From: Trichoderma breve
Lineage: Eukaryota > Ascomycota > Sordariomycetes > Hypocreales > Hypocreaceae
Reading direction: 5' to 3'
Assembly: GCF_028502605.1 (NCBI RefSeq)
Contig: NC_079233.1
Span: forward strand, 6,696,001 to 6,760,000
Length of the DNA stretch: 64,000 nt
Made by a program: the position numbers and the translations under genes. Positions within the stretch are counted from its first letter, which is position 1, and each line of letters starts with the position of its first letter. Under the pieces are notes generated by a model. That model saw only the letters and a program-made list of their open reading frames with translations. It was not told where the DNA came from and searched no databases. This document shows positions 27,681 through 42,868 of this stretch, piece by piece.

Positions 27681-29617
27681 GCGGAGGGAGTTGGTTGTTG
27701 GGGCGGTTTCAAAGCAAAAAAAATATGTAAAAGAAAGAATCTGATACCCAAAGTCATCTTTTACTTGTTAATGACGGTGAAATCTCAAACTTATTGTGCC
27801 AAGTATAGATGTGTTCCACCATTCCCTCTAGTATACTGCTTGGTTGCTTGGCAGAGAGTGTGTTGGTCAGATTACGTATGTTTTCTACGCCCTAGTGGGG
27901 GCTCAGCTGCAGGATATCTTCCGTTTATGGATTCCAAATACTCCTATTGGAAGGAAGAGCACTATTTCATTATGTTTAATGCAATGTGAAACCTGCGTAG
28001 GCAAAAGTTCTGGTCATAGTTCTTGGATAGGGGAAGTTCCTTGTTACACATGCTTGTCTTTCTGTTTAAGTTGCAACGGAATGTAGCAACCGAGTACTCA
28101 ATCTGGATTTGGTGAAGTCGCCCGTTAGAACACCAGTACGCAACATGATGGCTGCCGCGCATAGTTTTGCCCAAATAGTATATTTCCTTCGAGTAACTGG
28201 AAGATATCTTTCCACCAATTTGTGAACGTCTTGTATCTATCTCTATTGGCGCGAGTAACGCTACCGCCAGGTGGAACTCGATTGACAAATGATTGACATC
28301 AGGCCCTTGCACCATGGTCAGCATTTAGTAACACCCCATGGGGGGATCCATTCCAGAATGACACAATGGTTTCCTATTTGGTATCATATTTTCCCGTCTA
28401 GACACGCGTTTATTAATCGCGAATGAGCCTCATGGGCTATGAAGCTTACCACGGATGCTTACGCGGGCATGTGTCTGTTCACACTTCCGGAATAGTCGCT
28501 CCACAATCTTGAAGAAATGCCTAATATAAGCATAACAGCCGGTCAACAGAAAAAGAAGCCGCAAGAGAACATTCTGGGAGTATGATCAGCAACAAGCTGG
28601 TACAGATTTTCAGGGCGAACGGCTAGCTCATAGCCTCAACTACCTAGTATAAACAACAGCAGGGAACCTACTAGTAATTAGTCCCTCTACCAACAGGGAT
28701 TTGGTGAGATTTGCCCAACTCATTTCTATTCAAAAATTGTTATTACTTGTTTTCCCGTACAATTTAATCACCTGGGTTGAAAGTAAGTTGCTACAGAGTT
28801 CTCTTTGTATGGAGTACAATCGGCTACAAATCTAGGTAATCCCTGACAGAAAAGGCATGCACAAGGCTTGCTATCTGTCTCTCATCATTTCTGTCTGTTT
28901 TAGAAGATACCCAATCTACCAAATTGCTCCACGAAATCCAATATTATGCGCGAATCGCATCATGCTAATCCCTAGATAGGCAGGTCCAAGCCTTTCATAA
29001 CCATTATTCGCCCACCCACATACCTGATTCAAGGATGTGTAGAGATATACCCCAGTCTAGCATCAACCGAAGGACGCAATTCGCAACTTCTCGACGATCA
29101 ACGGTCTTGGCATGACTTGCGGTGATATATTCGGGTTTCAGGGGCCTGGCATTAGGTAAATAATACCAGTTAGAGACCATGTATGCTCTTGCTCTGACGT
29201 AGTGCCAGCAGATTTTCGCCAATTTTTGCTCCAACCGGCTGAATGGAGCTGGGATTGGGTCGTGATAAGTCGTAGATATTGGCTGAGCCGACGGTCCGTC
29301 TGACCACTCTTTCTAGGACATGGTATTTCCACAAATAGCAGGTAAAATGAACCAACTTAAGCGAGAGATTCATTCAGTCTCGGCTCCAATTATCTGTTAG
29401 TTATGACGACATTGCGAAGAGTGGGTAGATGAGAGGCTCAGGACCTATTGGGAATCATTGAACCGAGGATATCTCAGGGTGAATTGATGAGAAAGATATA
29501 AAAGGCGTTGACATTCCTGCCGAGTAATCGTTGAAGAAGAAACAGATAAACCAGCCAAGGCAGTCTTTGGGCCTTTAATTCATCCATACAAGTCCACTTC
29601 TCACCTACTATTTCAAC
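27681..29617. promoter_or_regulatory. Long intergenic region with TATA box
   Basis: 1.94 kb upstream of the secreted protein gene. A TATAAAAG at 29497..29504 lies about 115 bp before its ATG. Small ORFs inside, such as 27962..28324 on the minus strand, show no domain, signal peptide or neighbour support. Confidence 0.5.
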
Positions 29618-30073
29618 ATGAAGTTCACAACGACTCAGCTTCTCGCTGCTCTTGGCTTTGCGAGCTATGCCGCAGCCGATTTCCACATCCTGACAGGACC
29701 ATGCTCTATCGCCCCTGGCTGGGGTGGCAGTCTTGAAGACTACGCCGTTGCGTGTCCTTCCAACTACTACAACTGCAAATGCATGATGGATGGAGATCGT
29801 ACCGGCCATGTCATTAATGGCCAAACGCCAAAATACGGCATTCACGATACTGGATCCAATTATTTCGAACTTGACGGCATGTGCGGCGTGGGAAACATGA
29901 ACTTTTATCTGCAGGGCGATGGTACATGGTTGTTCTACATTGCTGGAGGAGACGGCTCCGTGCAAGGCCAATGCTGGCCGGGCGATAACAGCATCAAGGA
30001 CTGCAATGAATTCAGTGCTGCCTGCAGTTTGAGCAACATCTTGGTTTGCTATTCATACATTTGCGAACCATGA
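29618..30073 (+). CDS. Small secreted cysteine-rich protein
   Basis: A single-exon gene of 151 aa. Residues 1-20 (MKFTTTQLLAALGFASYAAA) are a clear signal peptide. The mature chain of about 130 residues carries ten cysteines, an even number suited to disulfide pairing, and is rich in Gly, Asn, Asp and Tyr. It is acidic. No family is recognised with confidence. Such small secreted cysteine-rich proteins are candidate effectors or elicitors in plant- or fungus-interacting ascomycetes (inference from size and composition). A proper TATA box and long upstream region suggest regulated expression. Confidence 0.85.
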   Translation: MKFTTTQLLAALGFASYAAADFHILTGPCSIAPGWGGSLEDYAVACPSNYYNCKCMMDGDRTGHVINGQTPKYGIHDTGSNYFELDGMCGVGNMNFYLQGDGTWLFYIAGGDGSVQGQCWPGDNSIKDCNEFSAACSLSNILVCYSYICEP

Positions 30074-31512: not shown

Positions 31513-32532
31513 ATGTCCAAAACCATGCAGGCCTGGCAAGTTGCCGCTCCTGGACCTATTGAGGAAACCTTGAAGTTTCTCGACGATGTTGCGCAGCCAA
31601 CCGCACCCCTCCAAAATGGACAAGTTCTTGTCGAAGTTGCCAGTGCAGGCCTCAATCCCGCAGACTACAAAATGCTCAGATTGGGCCTCGCATCCAAGGC
31701 CCTCACGACTTTTCCCAAAACACTAGGCATGGATCTCAGCGGCCGAGTTGTCTCAGTAGCAGATGATGTTACCGACACTAAGACTGGAGACGTCGTATTA
31801 GTTCGATTGGACCCTACCAAGGGCCCTGGGGCGCTCTCTCAATATGTCATCGCCAATCGCGCAGATTATGCAGTTTTGCCGTCAAATTTTGACCTAGATC
31901 TCGCTGCCGGTGCGCCGACAACCGCTTTGACAGCATATCAGTCTATCAAGCCGTACGTCCAAACTGGCTCCAAAGTCTTCATCAATGGTGGATCTGGAGG
32001 AGTTGGCACCATTGGCATTCAGATTGCAAAAGCTCTTGGATGCCATGTCACAGCCTCTTGCTCTACGGCGAAAAAGGAGCTTTGTGAGCGAGTCGGAGCG
32101 GATGAGATTATCGATTATAAGACCGGAGATGTCGTGGCGCAATTGAAACAGAACGGAAAAATCTTTGACCACATTGTCGATAACGTCGGCTCTTCCTTTG
32201 CAGACCTTTATCACCAGGCGAGCCATTACCTTAAGCCAGAGGGAGCCTTTGTACTGGTTGGTGGCCCGATGTCTTTAAGCGGTGTCAAAAACGTCTTGAC
32301 GGCGAAATTCCTTCCTTCGTTCTTGGGTGGAGGTAAACATCAATTGGTGCCGTACATGACGAAAAATAACCGTGACGATCTTGCGCAAGTTGCAAAGTGG
32401 TTGGCAGACGGAGTGATCAAAACTGTCATTGACTCGACATTTGAGTTTAAAGAGGCTTTGGAAGCGTTTGAGCATCTCAAGAAGGGCTCGAGTGGCGGAA
32501 AGGTAATTGTTCATGTCTCCAGCAAGGCATAA
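31513..32532 (+). CDS. MDR-family quinone oxidoreductase-like enzyme
   Basis: 339 aa from the ATG at 31513, which sits in a good context (CGCCATGTCC); the ORF is open further upstream but that part looks untranslated. It is a medium-chain dehydrogenase/reductase: GroES-like N-terminal half (VLVEVASAGLNPADYKML, GMDLSGRVV) and a Rossmann half with the NAD(P)H loop INGGSGGVGTIGIQIAK. The catalytic and structural zinc ligands of alcohol dehydrogenases are absent, so a zinc-free quinone oxidoreductase/enoyl-reductase activity with NADPH is likely. Predicted cytosolic. It is convergent with the organophosphate transporter gene and not obviously part of that cluster. Confidence 0.92.
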   Translation: MSKTMQAWQVAAPGPIEETLKFLDDVAQPTAPLQNGQVLVEVASAGLNPADYKMLRLGLASKALTTFPKTLGMDLSGRVVSVADDVTDTKTGDVVLVRLDPTKGPGALSQYVIANRADYAVLPSNFDLDLAAGAPTTALTAYQSIKPYVQTGSKVFINGGSGGVGTIGIQIAKALGCHVTASCSTAKKELCERVGADEIIDYKTGDVVAQLKQNGKIFDHIVDNVGSSFADLYHQASHYLKPEGAFVLVGGPMSLSGVKNVLTAKFLPSFLGGGKHQLVPYMTKNNRDDLAQVAKWLADGVIKTVIDSTFEFKEALEAFEHLKKGSSGGKVIVHVSSKA

Positions 32533-32917: not shown

Positions 32918-34597
32918 CTAAATGTGAAAAGCAGAGCTTTTAATCTCGTCGTCGACTGCCTCTCCAAAGGTTCCCTCATATCCATTCTCCTCAAGATACG
33001 CACGGAACCGAGCGTCTTCACTTTCAAGGTCCTTCTCCTTGTCAGGGATCAAGAACCATGTGACAAGACAGCCAACCATGGCAAATGCGGCACCGATAAG
33101 AAAGACTCCCTGAACTCCTTTTTGCGAATCCGAAAAAGAGTTTTGAATGGGTGTAAAAACTTGGGTCCCAATCGCAGCACCTGCTTTTCCCACGGCAGCG
33201 GCAAGGCCAAGGAAGTGGCCTCGGACTGGCGTTGGGAAGGATTCAGCTCCGCAGAGAAAAGTGCCAACCTGGGAAGTTTTAGTCTCACTGAAAGCATGTT
33301 TAGATAGTGAATATGGGATATACGTACACCTGGGCCCATCTCTCCAAGAGTGTTGAAGATTCCGTACAAGACGACGAAGAGCGGGAATACACTCGTGATG
33401 GGGTTGAGAGCGCCTCCAATGATGAAGGCAAGGATCGACCAGAGGAAGAAACCCAATGCCATAGTCTGCTTGCGACCAATCTTGTCCATGAGAAGACCAC
33501 CAATAAGAGTTCCTGGAAGGTAAAAGCAGTTGAGAACAGTGCCATAGCCAATGTTTTGGACAAGGGTGTTGTTGGGGTTCAGAGTTCCGATGATGGTGGA
33601 ACCAAAGATTCCGAATGGATAAGTCTGTTGAAAAGAAGTTATTACATCATCATTTTACACTTTCCGAAGACATCAAGTTTCACTTACAACAAAGTCGTAG
33701 AAAAACCACGCCAGAGATGTTCCGAGCATGGGTCTCCAATAGCGCTTAATCACTAGCCAGTATGGAATGTGCGTCTTCATCGCATGCTTCTTATACTGCG
33801 ATGAGTTGATCAACCGAAGACGGAAGAACAAGAGTCCAACAGGAAGAATGAAACCGAGGCCAAAGGAGACACGCCACACGCCATCGTTGATATGCTGATG
33901 GTAGGCTGCGAGGACAATGAGCACGATGACACCGGCCATCACAAATCCCAGATCAATGGCGAAGTCAGTAGCGACAGCGACGAGCATGCCACGGCGCCGC
34001 CTCACAAAGGCAGTCTCATCCGAAGCTTCGGCACTGCCAGTACCACATGTGGGATATTCTCCTATTGCCGTGGATCTAATCAGTGGCTGATCTTTCTGTT
34101 CACGCTGAATTTGAGACATGAGACTCACCTCCAGCTCCGAACCCGGCAACACCACGACCAACGATCATCATCCAGAACATGCCGGTGGGAGTTTTGCCAT
34201 GCGCCGCAGTAGCCAGCACGATACCCAAGATTAAAAACAGAGTTGCAAAGAAGATGCCAGTGCGGCGACCAAGTTTGTCGATTCCCCAGCCAAAGAACAG
34301 CATGCCAAATACTTCACCGATGAGAAAAGCGTTGGACAATCTGGTCTTGATGGTCGATGTGAATGCATCTGGATAAAGTTCCGCAAAGAGAGGATTCATG
34401 TATCCGATGACCTGCGCATTGTAACCGTCTGAGAATAGAGCCAAGCCGCCGACAAGGACCATCAAGATTGACGAGATGCGGCTGGCGCGCGATAGCGCGC
34501 TCGGCTGAGCAACAACATCTTTGTTGGAGTCGTTGGTTGGCTCAAGAGTAGGCGAAACAGCCACTTCATCGACCTGAGCAGTCTTGGCATCCATCAT
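32918..34597 (-). CDS. MFS organophosphate transporter, GIT1/PHO84 class
   Basis: Exons 34597..34129, 34061..33688, 33624..33328 and 33268..32918 give 496 aa. All three introns (67, 63 and 59 bp) have canonical ends, and the splices restore AGFGAGGEYPTCGTGSAEA, FYDFVTYPFGIFGST and MGPGVGTFLCGAESFPTPVRG. The 12-TM layout, the ALFSDGYNAQVIGY TM1 and the GRGVAGFGAGGEYP TM4 are those of the phosphate:H+ symporter family, closest by pattern to yeast GIT1-like glycerophosphodiester permeases (family knowledge). It is divergent from a PhyH dioxygenase, with a PhnZ-like HD oxygenase beyond. That context suggests uptake of a phosphonate or other organophosphorus compound (inference). Three CACGTG boxes lie in the shared promoter. 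Confidence 0.92.
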
Positions 34598-35516
34598 TGC
34601 TGTTTGCTGTAAATAACTTTGCCAAGATGTAAAACAGCGAGAACAAAAAAGGATGCGGGCAAAGGTTTTGGTTCCCCCTTAGTGTCTCAGTGTCTTGTCT
34701 CAAGGAAAGTTCGCACGGAACTGGGAACTTATACTTTTATGCAATGTAACTTTATATGCGGCAGACGATAACAAGATTTTGTTTGCCGATGAAGTCGCCT
34801 GTTATCTCTAGACCATGCACGTGAATACATGCAACTGTACATCATTGGTGAACTTTTGCTCGACTCGTATCAAGAGGGCATATAAGCAGTAAATCTTGAT
34901 AGACCCGTAGGAAAGCGGCTAGAAGCTGATATCATTACGAACGCAAAAGTCCGGATCTCATCCACTGAGGGGTTTGCGACGGCGATACCCTGAATCACTC
35001 GTGAGCTTTCCGATTCCCACGTGCGTGTGTTGGTGAGAAGTCATTTCCAGCTGCAGGTTTGTCAATTATACCCTATCCGTCCATCAGGATTCTAGCCATC
35101 TGCCTCGCGATTGGTGATATATCGACTTAGAAGTCGTGCCTCGTGCCGATCGGCCGGCAGTGGCACCCACGTGGGCCGAGAATATCTCTTGATTCATCGG
35201 GAGGCGCACCGGCAGCCCTCCAGTTTGTCCAGTTTCGGCACGTTAGCCACTTGGTGGGGTGGTCCCGTAATCCACAAGCTTCTGGACGTGGATCCTGGAA
35301 GAATGATCTCCATCGGCTAGGGAGAGCATTCCCGTAAGCGATATGCCTAGCTTGGCGGGAACTTCCGAGTATACGATGCGATGCAAGCCGTTCGTGTTAG
35401 AAGAAGGGCGGGTAAAAGAAAGAGGAGGAGTTGAGGGTTACAAAAGAGCTGGTAAGCTCTATGCAGGTCCTACTACCCATGTCGTTAATTCTTTATCGAG
35501 AGTGCACCACATCACC
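34598..35516. promoter_or_regulatory. Divergent promoter with three CACGTG boxes
   Basis: 919 bp between the transporter and the dioxygenase. CACGTG occurs at 34818..34823, 35018..35023 and 35168..35173. This hexamer is the core site of the bHLH phosphate-starvation regulators Pho4 (yeast) and NUC-1 (Neurospora). By chance one expects about 0.2 in this length. It may also bind other bHLH factors. Confidence 0.6.
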
Positions 35517-36527
35517 ATGTTGTCAGCTGAGCAGGTTGCCTTCTTCAAGGCGAATGGCTATCTCATTGTTCGAGATATCCTCAACGATGCCGAGACTGCT
35601 GAAGTACAGAAGTGGGCGCAGGAGGTGCACGACTGGACGCCAACTGCTGACTCTCAATTTATGCCTTACGAGGTAAGATGACCTTACCATGACAGATCAT
35701 GTTGTTGTATGTGGTCATTTAGAGGCGTATTTACAATAATGAACAGGAGATAAATTCTCGTGGAGAGACGGTTCTTTGCCGTACAGAAAACTACGCCGAT
35801 AGCCACGAGGGGTTCAATGGACTACTCCGCGGCGAAAGGCTCTTGGGGATTCTGGAAGAGCTTTCAGGAGAGCCCATGTATCTTTTCAAGGAAAAGATTA
35901 ATTATAAGCTCGCAGGAAGTGGTAGGTGTTTTTGTGTTTCTGTGAGAAAGAAGAGAGATGGCTAATTGAAGTAGGTGGATTTGCGCCGCACATTGATGCC
36001 GTGGCTTACAATCACATTAAAGATGTGAAGCATCTCACTATCTTGCTTGCTGTTGACAAATCGACTCTCAACAACGGAGGCCTGGAGGTTGTTGATGCTA
36101 GCCACAACATGGATATTCCCCTCAATGTTGAAGATCACTGCATCACCAATGAGTGGGTTGACTCTCATGAGTGGAAGCCCGTTGAGCTCGAGCCCGGTGA
36201 GTGTAATTGTCTAGCCATGAATGTTCACTTCCTCTCCTACGTCGGCACTTTCTGACATTTTTACTAGGCCAGCTGCTCATTTTTACTTCATACCTGGCTC
36301 ACCGCAGTGGACCTAACCACAGCAATGAGAACCGCAAGGCGCTCTACGCTACGTATAACCGTGCCAGCGAAGGTGATTTGCATCAAGATTACTACGAACT
36401 GAGGAAGAAAGAGTGGCCCGCAACTCACATGCGTAAGGAGGGAGAGGCGTATGAAGATGGAGCCTTGAGATACGCGTTCGGTTCGCCGATGCTGAGCGTT
36501 GATGCCGGCCGTCAGCTGGCTTTCTAG
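35517..36527 (+). CDS. PhyH-family Fe(II)/2-oxoglutarate dioxygenase, PhnY*-like
   Basis: Four exons (35517..35672, 35747..35921, 35975..36196, 36268..36527) encode 270 aa. The double-stranded beta-helix iron site is His116-x-Asp118 (FAPHIDAVAY) with distal His196 (YLAHRSGPN); Arg207 (ENRKALYATYN) is placed to bind 2-oxoglutarate. The N-terminus (LSAEQVAFFKANGYLIVRD) is typical of PhyH proteins. In bacteria the PhyH protein PhnY* hydroxylates 2-aminoethylphosphonate at C1, and PhnZ then cleaves the product (established). The downstream gene here is PhnZ-like, so I infer the same two-step role. The spacing to it is 478 bp, in the same orientation. A generic PhyH role in secondary metabolism is the alternative. 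Predicted cytosolic. Confidence 0.9.
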
Positions 36528-37005
36528 ATACAACCTTACAAATTATCCGGTTAGCTCTTGGAAGAGTGTTTACGTAAAGGTTTAGTTCTCATTATTCTAG
36601 AGACAGTGATGCTTTGAATTGCCGATAAAGTAAACGCCATGTGCACTTGAACTTCACCTAGAAGATAGTTCCTCAAGTTCTCTCAAAGAAGTTTGTATAA
36701 GTCGGCTCCCTGCGGCACACTCTTCTAAGCCGATCTCTGGGCTAGATCTTTTGTAACAGGATTTGACCCATCCACGTGCAGACGGCATTGTGCCGAGTGG
36801 ACGATCTATACACGTGTTAATGCATGAAGATTGGGGGGTGGAGATATGGAGCGAATACTCCAGTGTCTCATAGTATAGCCAATATAGTGCTTACCCACAG
36901 ATTATATGTGCATGAGTGCTGTATATCTAATACGTCCCAGTCGCCTGCATGCCAGTCACCAAACTCAGCCCAGCCTTACTGCCTGTCGTCACTTTCATCA
37001 TCAAA
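36528..37005. promoter_or_regulatory. Promoter of the HD gene with two CACGTG boxes
   Basis: 478 bp between dioxygenase and HD gene. CACGTG at 36773..36778 and 36811..36816, 38 bp apart, about 190-230 bp upstream of the ATG at 37006. Same hexamer as in the preceding divergent promoter. Confidence 0.6.
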
Positions 37006-37632
37006 ATGGCCATCCCTGCAACCCTTGAGCCAGAGGCTGTCACCTCTTACATAATTTCCATTCTTCAAGACTCAGACTACACTCCCTACATCGGCGAGCC
37101 AATCTCTCAGCTGCAGCATTCCCTGCAATGTGCTGCGTTGGCCGCCGAGGCATCTCCAGCCGTGGATGAAGCTACACAGGTTGCTGCGCTGCTTCATGAT
37201 GTTGGGCAATTCGCCCCAGCAGATGACTTGATTGCTTCAGCAAGTCTTCCAATTCAAAACTTGGGAGATGCTCCGGCTACACAGAGCGTTGGACGTGTTG
37301 GCCATGAGACTCTGGGAGCCCGCCTGCTGCTCTCACTAGGCTTCTCTGACAAAGTTGCTCGCCTGGTGGAATCGCACGTAGCAGCCAAACGCTATTTGTG
37401 TGCCGTAGATGAGTCTTATAATGACTTACTCTCAGAAGCAAGCAAAAAGAGCCTCTTTTACCAAGGCGGGCCAATGACTTCAGAAGAAGTAAAGGAATTC
37501 AGCTCGGGTCCGTGGTGCCAGGAAATGTGCCAGCTCAGGAAGTGGGACGACGAGGCAAAGATTGAAGGACTCGTAGTGAGAGATTTGGACAGCTGGAGGG
37601 AGGCGATTCAGAGGCAGATTGAGCGAAGATGA
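37006..37632 (+). CDS. HD-domain oxygenase, PhnZ-like
   Basis: 208 aa from the ATG at 37006; the frame is open upstream to an ATG at 36949, but the shorter start begins in the conserved N-terminus. The HD-domain metal ligands are His38, His64-Asp65, His100, His124 and Asp181 (KWDDEAK). Tyr28-x-x-Glu31 (YIGE) precedes them, and Lys128 follows His124 (HVAAKRYL). In the bacterial mixed-valence diiron oxygenase PhnZ I recall Tyr24, Glu27, His34, His58-Asp59, His80, His104, Lys108 and Asp161. Spacings 24-27-34, 80-104-108 and 104-161 are identical here. PhnZ cleaves 2-amino-1-hydroxyethylphosphonate to glycine and phosphate (established). The Tyr/Glu pair separates it from plain HD phosphohydrolases. 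The SEASKKSLFYQGGPM segment fits the phosphonate-binding loop. I am fairly confident of the subfamily, less of the exact substrate. Confidence 0.9.
   Translation: MAIPATLEPEAVTSYIISILQDSDYTPYIGEPISQLQHSLQCAALAAEASPAVDEATQVAALLHDVGQFAPADDLIASASLPIQNLGDAPATQSVGRVGHETLGARLLLSLGFSDKVARLVESHVAAKRYLCAVDESYNDLLSEASKKSLFYQGGPMTSEEVKEFSSGPWCQEMCQLRKWDDEAKIEGLVVRDLDSWREAIQRQIERR

Positions 37633-37920: not shown

Positions 37921-42868
<4,948 letters not shown>

What the first reader, a model, noticed from the sequence alone, without database searches (positions are those of the whole stretch)
32918..37632. Candidate fungal phosphonate-catabolism cluster (transporter + PhnY*-like + PhnZ-like)
Three neighbouring genes form a logical pathway: a GIT1/PHO84-class transporter, a PhyH-family 2-oxoglutarate dioxygenase and an HD-domain oxygenase with PhnZ-type ligands. 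In bacteria PhnY* and PhnZ convert 2-aminoethylphosphonate to glycine and phosphate. I know of no well-described fungal cluster of this kind with its own transporter and phosphate-type promoter sites. Seen: gene order, motifs. Known: bacterial PhnY*/PhnZ chemistry. Inferred: the substrate and role here.
Basis: partly seen in the sequence, partly recalled or inferred. Interest (0 to 1): 0.87.

Follow-up and report, generated by a model that had tools for sequence, protein, structure and literature searches.

The report
Fungal phosphonate-scavenging gene cluster
A mould, likely a Trichoderma, carries three neighbouring genes, for a transporter related to phosphate carriers and two iron enzymes related to bacterial phosphonate-degrading ones, that are predicted to import a phosphonate (likely 2-aminoethylphosphonate) and would break its carbon-phosphorus bond to supply phosphate when phosphate is scarce.

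The parts
32918..34597 (-). GIT1/PHO84-class MFS transporter, 496 aa, four exons (34597-34129, 34061-33688, 33624-33328, 33268-32918); predicted phosphonate importer
   Evidence: splice model; Pfam; 98% identical Trichoderma protein; 74-76% identical Sporothrix proteins; PDB: phosphate transporter 7sp5, E 2.7e-25
34598..35516 (.). Divergent promoter between transporter and PhyH gene, 919 bp, with three CACGTG sites at 34818, 35018, 35168 (the first two read GCACGTG on one strand)
   Evidence: NUC-1 consensus GCACGTG from PMC12506109
35517..36527 (+). PhyH-family Fe(II)/2-oxoglutarate dioxygenase, 270 aa, four exons; predicted PhnY*-type phosphonate alpha-hydroxylase (H116, D118, H196, R207 kept)
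36528..37005 (.). Intergenic region upstream of the HD gene, 478 bp, with two CACGTG sites at 36773 (reads GCACGTG on the minus strand) and 36811
37006..37632 (+). HD-domain oxygenase of PhnZ type, 208 aa, single exon; ligands H38, H64, D65, H100, H124, D181; YxxE loop Y28/E31

Best explanation
The three adjacent genes, an MFS transporter, a PhyH-type dioxygenase and a PhnZ-type HD protein, likely form one phosphate-scavenging pathway in which the transporter would import a phosphonate (likely 2-aminoethylphosphonate), the dioxygenase is predicted to hydroxylate the carbon next to phosphorus, and the HD protein is predicted to use O2 to cleave the C-P bond, giving phosphate and glycine. Shown: the genes, their families, the kept catalytic residues, the kept gene order in several other fungi and the cluster of CACGTG sites. 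Inferred: induction by the NUC-1/Pho4 phosphate-starvation regulator; the HD protein uses a mixed-valent di-iron site as PhnZ does; the substrate is an aminophosphonate and not methylphosphonate or trimethylaminoethylphosphonate; the transporter carries the phosphonate itself.
Against: No activity, growth or expression data. No characterised AEP-type PhnY* sequence was available, so 'AEP' for the PhyH protein rests on its partner. Trees are quick searches with SH-aLRT only and carry long-branch warnings (L073 and L064; the unlinked rows and L101). The HD protein scores 170.3 bits, under the curated cut-off (214.6) of TIGR03276; 7 of the 9 bacterial HD proteins scanned also fall under it, but less far (195.6-214.4). 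The nearest non-fungal HD proteins (Bacteroidota) lack such a PhyH gene: at E<=1e-20, 0 of 13 Bacteroidota genomes and 1 of 20 genomes in all, the one being Poribacteria; of 68 bacterial HD loci 1 has one within the flanks held. The fungal gene order is not universal: in Ophiocordyceps australis the transporter hit lies 300 tags away on another contig, in Torrubiella hemipterigena 25 tags from the HD gene. CACGTG also serves other bHLH factors, and a transporter paralogue of the same genome (L079) has none within the stretch held.
Confidence: 0.72

Rival explanations
1. Same chemistry, different substrate: the pair works on methylphosphonate, 3-aminopropylphosphonate or another natural phosphonate rather than on 2-aminoethylphosphonate.
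For: The best NCBIfam match of the PhyH protein is the methylphosphonate hydroxylase model (166 bits). PhoF accepts AEP and 3-aminopropylphosphonate (PMC10574752 passages). The 13 active-site columns checked are the same in PhnZ, TmpB and the methylphosphonate-type control, so they do not tell substrates apart.
Against: 166 bits is far under that model's cut-off of 500, while the control L108 scores 558. The HD protein falls on the PhnZ side of the tree, not with L108, and the fungal-conserved residue equals PhnZ at 53 of 72 columns against 49 for L108, 48 for the TmpB of L031 and 45 for TmpB of the PDB, a small difference.
Confidence: 0.17
2. The two enzymes are a phosphonate pathway, but the transporter is an ordinary glycerophosphodiester or phosphate permease that only shares the phosphate-starvation promoter.
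For: Database names of its relatives include glycerophosphoinositol permease and inorganic phosphate transporter. GIT1 genes are Pho4 targets in other fungi (PMC5620639 passages). The order is not universal.
Against: The transporter homologue is next to the PhyH gene in two Sporothrix, one Penicillium, one Aspergillus, T. viride and a fungus of the Carpinus record, and Sporothrix homologues are 74-76% identical to it while the nearest paralogue found in its own genome is 52% identical: it looks like a separate, old group that travels with the pair. No tree of transporters was built.
Confidence: 0.25
3. The HD protein is a phosphohydrolase of another pathway and the PhyH protein hydroxylates an unrelated metabolite (databases call its relatives epoxidase subunit A, ectoine hydroxylase or hypophosphite dioxygenase).
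For: Most known HD proteins are phosphohydrolases (PMC8177086 passages); the PhyH family is functionally diverse and its structure matches are proline, leucine and ectoine hydroxylases.
Against: Only PhnZ and TmpB match the HD protein closely; YxxE loop kept in 22 of 22 rows; linkage of this PhyH lineage to such HD genes in bacteria.
Confidence: 0.05

Closest known systems
PhoF of Fonsecaea multimorphosa (fused PhnY-PhnZ; review PMC10574752 passages)
   Same: Fungal; a 2-oxoglutarate dioxygenase domain plus a PhnZ-type HD domain; predicted same two-step oxidation of aminophosphonates
   Different: Here two separate genes with a 478-bp gap and a stop codon between them, and a divergent transporter gene; PhoF is one protein (its sequence was not at hand for comparison)
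Bacterial PhnY*/PhnZ (HF130_AEPn_1; PhnZ 4mlm, 4n71)
   Same: HD protein: fold, six metal ligands, YxxE loop, 41% identity in the structural alignment; partnered with a 2-oxoglutarate dioxygenase
   Different: Fungal clade of its own; spliced gene for the dioxygenase; MFS transporter; fungal-type promoter sites
Gimesia-type methylphosphonate pair (NF052437/NF052439; control L108)
   Same: PhyH-type hydroxylase beside an HD oxygenase
   Different: Window proteins score 166 (cut-off 500) and 124 (cut-off 300) bits against these models; separate place in the HD tree
TmpA/TmpB (Leisingera; control L031)
   Same: HD oxygenase with the same ligands
   Different: TmpA of the control is a TauD-family enzyme, the window's partner is PhyH; HD protein 125 bits (cut-off 300) against TmpB
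GIT1/PHO84 family of fungal phosphate and glycerophosphodiester transporters
   Same: MFS family; names of its relatives; sequence match to the solved phosphate transporter 7sp5
   Different: Linkage to a PhnY*/PhnZ-like pair; substrate unknown

Membership tests
PhnZ-type HD-domain oxygenases | Metal-binding H...HD...H...H...D set | tested here: met
   H38, H64, D65, H100, H124, D181 align to PhnZ H34, H58, D59, H80, H104, D161; kept in all 54 rows that I chose for A3
PhnZ-type HD-domain oxygenases | YxxE substrate loop that PhnZ and TmpB have and MIOX lacks (PMC8177086 passages) | tested here: met
   Y28/E31, 22 of 22 rows labelled fungal
PhnZ-type HD-domain oxygenases | PhnZ fold | tested here: met
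PhnZ-type HD-domain oxygenases | Mixed-valent di-iron oxygenase activity | not testable with these tools
   needs purified protein
NCBIfam TIGR03276 (Phn-HD) as curated | Score at or above 214.6 bits | tested here: not met
   170.3 bits; it is still the best-scoring family
TmpB (NF049941) | Equivalog cut-off of 300 bits | tested here: not met
   125.1 bits; control L031 304 bits
TmpA/TmpB pathway | TauD-family hydroxylase partner | tested here: not met
   Partner is PhyH; control L031 partner is TauD/TmpA, 550 bits
Methylphosphonate hydroxylase (NF052437) and its HD partner (NF052439) | Equivalog cut-offs of 500 and 300 bits | tested here: not met
   166.1 and 123.6 bits; control L108 558 and 410 bits
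PhnY*-type hydroxylases | PhyH family with the 2-His-1-carboxylate and 2-oxoglutarate arginine (roles recalled from the superfamily) | tested here: met
   PF05721 87.6 bits; H116, D118, H196, R207 invariant in the 45 rows that I chose for A4
PhnY*-type hydroxylases | Gene coupled to a PhnZ-type HD gene | tested here: met
   Window; 7 of 7 fungal tag comparisons; 12 of 12 Actinomycetota genomes with a hit
PhnY*-type hydroxylases | Closest kin of characterised AEP-type PhnY* | not tested
PhoF | Single fused polypeptide | tested here: not met
   Separate reading frames with stop at 36525-36527 and HD start at 37006
GIT1/PHO84-class MFS transporters | MFS domains and match to solved phosphate transporters | tested here: met
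   PF00083 136 bits, PF07690 83 bits; 7sp5 E 2.7e-25
GIT1/PHO84-class MFS transporters | Transport of glycerophosphodiesters or phosphate | not testable with these tools
   needs uptake assay

The most novel reading that the evidence does not exclude
A widely conserved eukaryotic phosphonate regulon: a dedicated GIT1-family phosphonate permease, the first in a eukaryote, co-inherited with an unfused PhnY*/PhnZ pair across Pezizomycotina and switched on by NUC-1 in phosphate starvation, which would explain how moulds live on phosphonates.
Probability: 0.5. Interest if true: 0.72.

Novelty: new variant of a known kind. Interest (0 to 1): 0.6.

Why it matters
The review PMC10574752 (passages) says that fungi can degrade phosphonates, but the only fungal enzyme of this pathway named in the passages that I read is the fused PhoF. 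A kept three-gene unit with its own transporter and phosphate-type promoter gives a directly testable pathway for uptake, hydroxylation and C-P cleavage in moulds such as Trichoderma, Sporothrix and Beauveria, and a candidate for a eukaryotic phosphonate permease.

Tried and rejected
Non-phosphonate HD hydrolase: rejected. TmpA/TmpB type and methylphosphonate type: rejected as family membership, with controls L031 and L108. PhnX phosphonatase as a parallel route in the same genome: one hit at 34 bits, cut-off 220, in a search that also rings under the cut-off in 13 of 14 control genomes, so none shown. Fused Trichoderma models (P0005, P0009): judged likely annotation artefacts because they join the genes at different points and lose the conserved end of the PhyH protein; not tested further. 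The fused protein P0084 of Talaromyces islandicus lacks the segment with the ligand H104 of PhnZ, in its annotation at least. Linking the fungal clade to a bacterial donor with both genes: not reached; 0 of 13 Bacteroidota genomes of the nearest HD group had such a PhyH gene, and 3 of 398 Pseudomonadota genomes had PhyH hits, none with an HD gene in the stretch held, about 1.5 kb each side or less. Plasmid records: 41 with a PhyH match, 28 with an HD match; both genes adjacent on the two that I opened, of Rhodococcus and Dietzia. Literature: eight searches aimed at this question listed no paper whose title or shown abstract start describes an unfused fungal PhnY*/PhnZ cluster or a fungal phosphonate transporter; two more were on GIT1 and NUC-1. 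The library holds open-licence papers only; the TmpA/TmpB paper and a DOI that I guessed for the PhoF paper are not held.

Full report
What is there. The window holds three intact genes between 32918 and 37632: a transporter on the minus strand and, divergently on the plus strand, a PhyH-type dioxygenase followed by an intronless HD-domain gene. The splice models were chosen by reading frame and GT..AG borders; they agree with database proteins named Trichoderma at 98% identity over the full length. The genome has 38.5 Mb in 9 contigs. From these identities it is likely a Trichoderma close to T. semiorbis; no call names it.

The dioxygenase. It is PhyH, one of several PhyH genes of the genome (10 matches), and not the TauD type of TmpA (control L031: TauD, TmpA 550 bits). 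It matches the methylphosphonate hydroxylase model at 166 bits, far under 500, while control L108 reaches 558. Its structure model (P0001, 98% identical to the window protein, was folded in its place; pLDDT 92.8) resembles proline, leucine and ectoine hydroxylases at about 20% identity, so structure alone does not give the substrate. The argument is linkage: of 296 Actinomycetota genomes 12 have a hit at E<=1e-40, and all 12 have the HD gene adjacent or in the same reading frame; one of the 12, G001, was the seed. Two Actinomycete plasmids also carry the pair. Of 199 Planctomycetota 3 have a hit (searched with the methylphosphonate model), one with the HD gene (L108); of 398 Pseudomonadota 3 have a hit, none with an HD gene in the stretch held. 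In the PhyH tree the fungal rows (99) and the HD-linked bacterial rows (84) form one side (100) against five unlinked rows; the program warns of long branches there. The reverse is weaker: of 68 bacterial HD loci only 1 has such a PhyH gene within the flanks held, up to 5 kb and less at contig ends, and of 20 genomes of such loci only 1, Poribacteria, has one at E<=1e-20.

Gene order in fungi. The collections give no fungal DNA here, so I used locus tags and contig lengths printed with the proteins (tabulated). Where tags are serial, PhyH and HD are consecutive in 7 of 7 comparisons (T. semiorbis, Sporothrix eucalyptigena, S. bragantina, Beauveria asiatica, two Ophiocordyceps australis genomes, Trypethelium). 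Transporter and PhyH are consecutive in 6 of 7 (T. viride, two Sporothrix, a fungus in the Carpinus fangiana record, Penicillium canariense, Aspergillus alliaceus; not O. australis). Transporter and HD are two apart in 4 of 6 (three Sporothrix, Conoideocrella; not O. australis, and 25 apart in Torrubiella hemipterigena). The transporter's homologues in Sporothrix (74-76% identical) contrast with 52% for the nearest paralogue found in the same genome.

Promoters. CACGTG is the Pho4-type site (PMC2853525 passages); for Neurospora NUC-1 the consensus is GCACGTG (PMC12506109, passages read). Five of the window's 12 copies lie in the two cluster promoters, three of the five as GCACGTG in one orientation. 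Expected from the rest of the window: 0.16 (Poisson P 7e-7; with the whole window as background 0.26 and 8e-6); 0 of 200 shuffles reached five in those promoters, 3 of 200 reached five in some 2 kb. Against over-reading: the motif is shared by other factors (NUC-3 in the same paper; enriched at ribosomal genes in Fusarium, PMC2853525), and 23 other loci of the genome (79,464 bp, some overlapping) hold 18 copies, with none in the stretch of the paralogous transporter L079 and 0 to 2 per locus among the nine SPX loci.

How it likely works (inferred). Under phosphate starvation NUC-1 would open both promoters. The transporter would import an aminophosphonate, the PhyH enzyme would hydroxylate the alpha carbon, and the HD enzyme would cleave the C-P bond oxidatively to phosphate and glycine. 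PhnZ chemistry and the four known versions of the pathway are taken from PMC10574752 (passages read) and PMC8177086 (passages).

Known or new. The kind is known, also in fungi, as the fused PhoF (PMC10574752). The unfused pair with a linked transporter and phosphate-type promoter did not show up in the eight searches listed under Tried and rejected, which cover open-licence papers only. I therefore call it a new variant of a known kind.

Noticed in passing
L009, L011, L012, L014, L016-L019, L022, L024, L026, L028, L034 (Bacteroidota HD loci): Bacteroidota carry a PhnZ-side HD oxygenase without a PhnY*-like PhyH gene: 0 of 13 such genomes examined had one at E<=1e-20. Neighbours scanned include a phosphodiesterase-like and a PhoD-like protein (L009), an alkaline phosphatase (L012) and a phosphonatase-like hydrolase under its cut-off (L016). 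Their hydroxylase, or source of hydroxyphosphonate, is unknown.
   Followed up: partly
L097:685-2319 and L101:970-2886: Single reading frames with a PhyH domain followed by an HD domain in two Actinomycetota genomes: bacterial fusions resembling the fungal PhoF arrangement.
   Followed up: partly
L103, L104 (Rhodococcus and Dietzia plasmids): A PhyH-HD pair with the same four genes upstream on two plasmids: a PQQ-type beta-propeller protein, a methionine synthase II-like protein, a 2-oxoglutarate oxygenase and a GPR1/FUN34/YaaH transporter.
   Followed up: no
P0005, P0009 (Trichoderma lentiforme, T. pleuroticola): Annotated fused PhyH-HD proteins of 473 and 460 aa that lose the conserved end of the PhyH protein; likely gene-model artefacts.
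   Followed up: partly
37921-40374, minus strand: Peroxidase-family gene (Pfam peroxidase E 4.6e-47 for 37924-39495; catalase-peroxidase by my reading) directly beyond the HD gene.
   Followed up: no
31513-32532, plus strand: Zinc-binding dehydrogenase-like gene (ADH_zinc_N_2 E 1.6e-28) on the other side of the cluster.
   Followed up: no
29612-30073, plus strand: Small open frame of 153 aa with a signal-like start (by eye) and no Pfam match at 1e-5; perhaps a small secreted protein.
   Followed up: no
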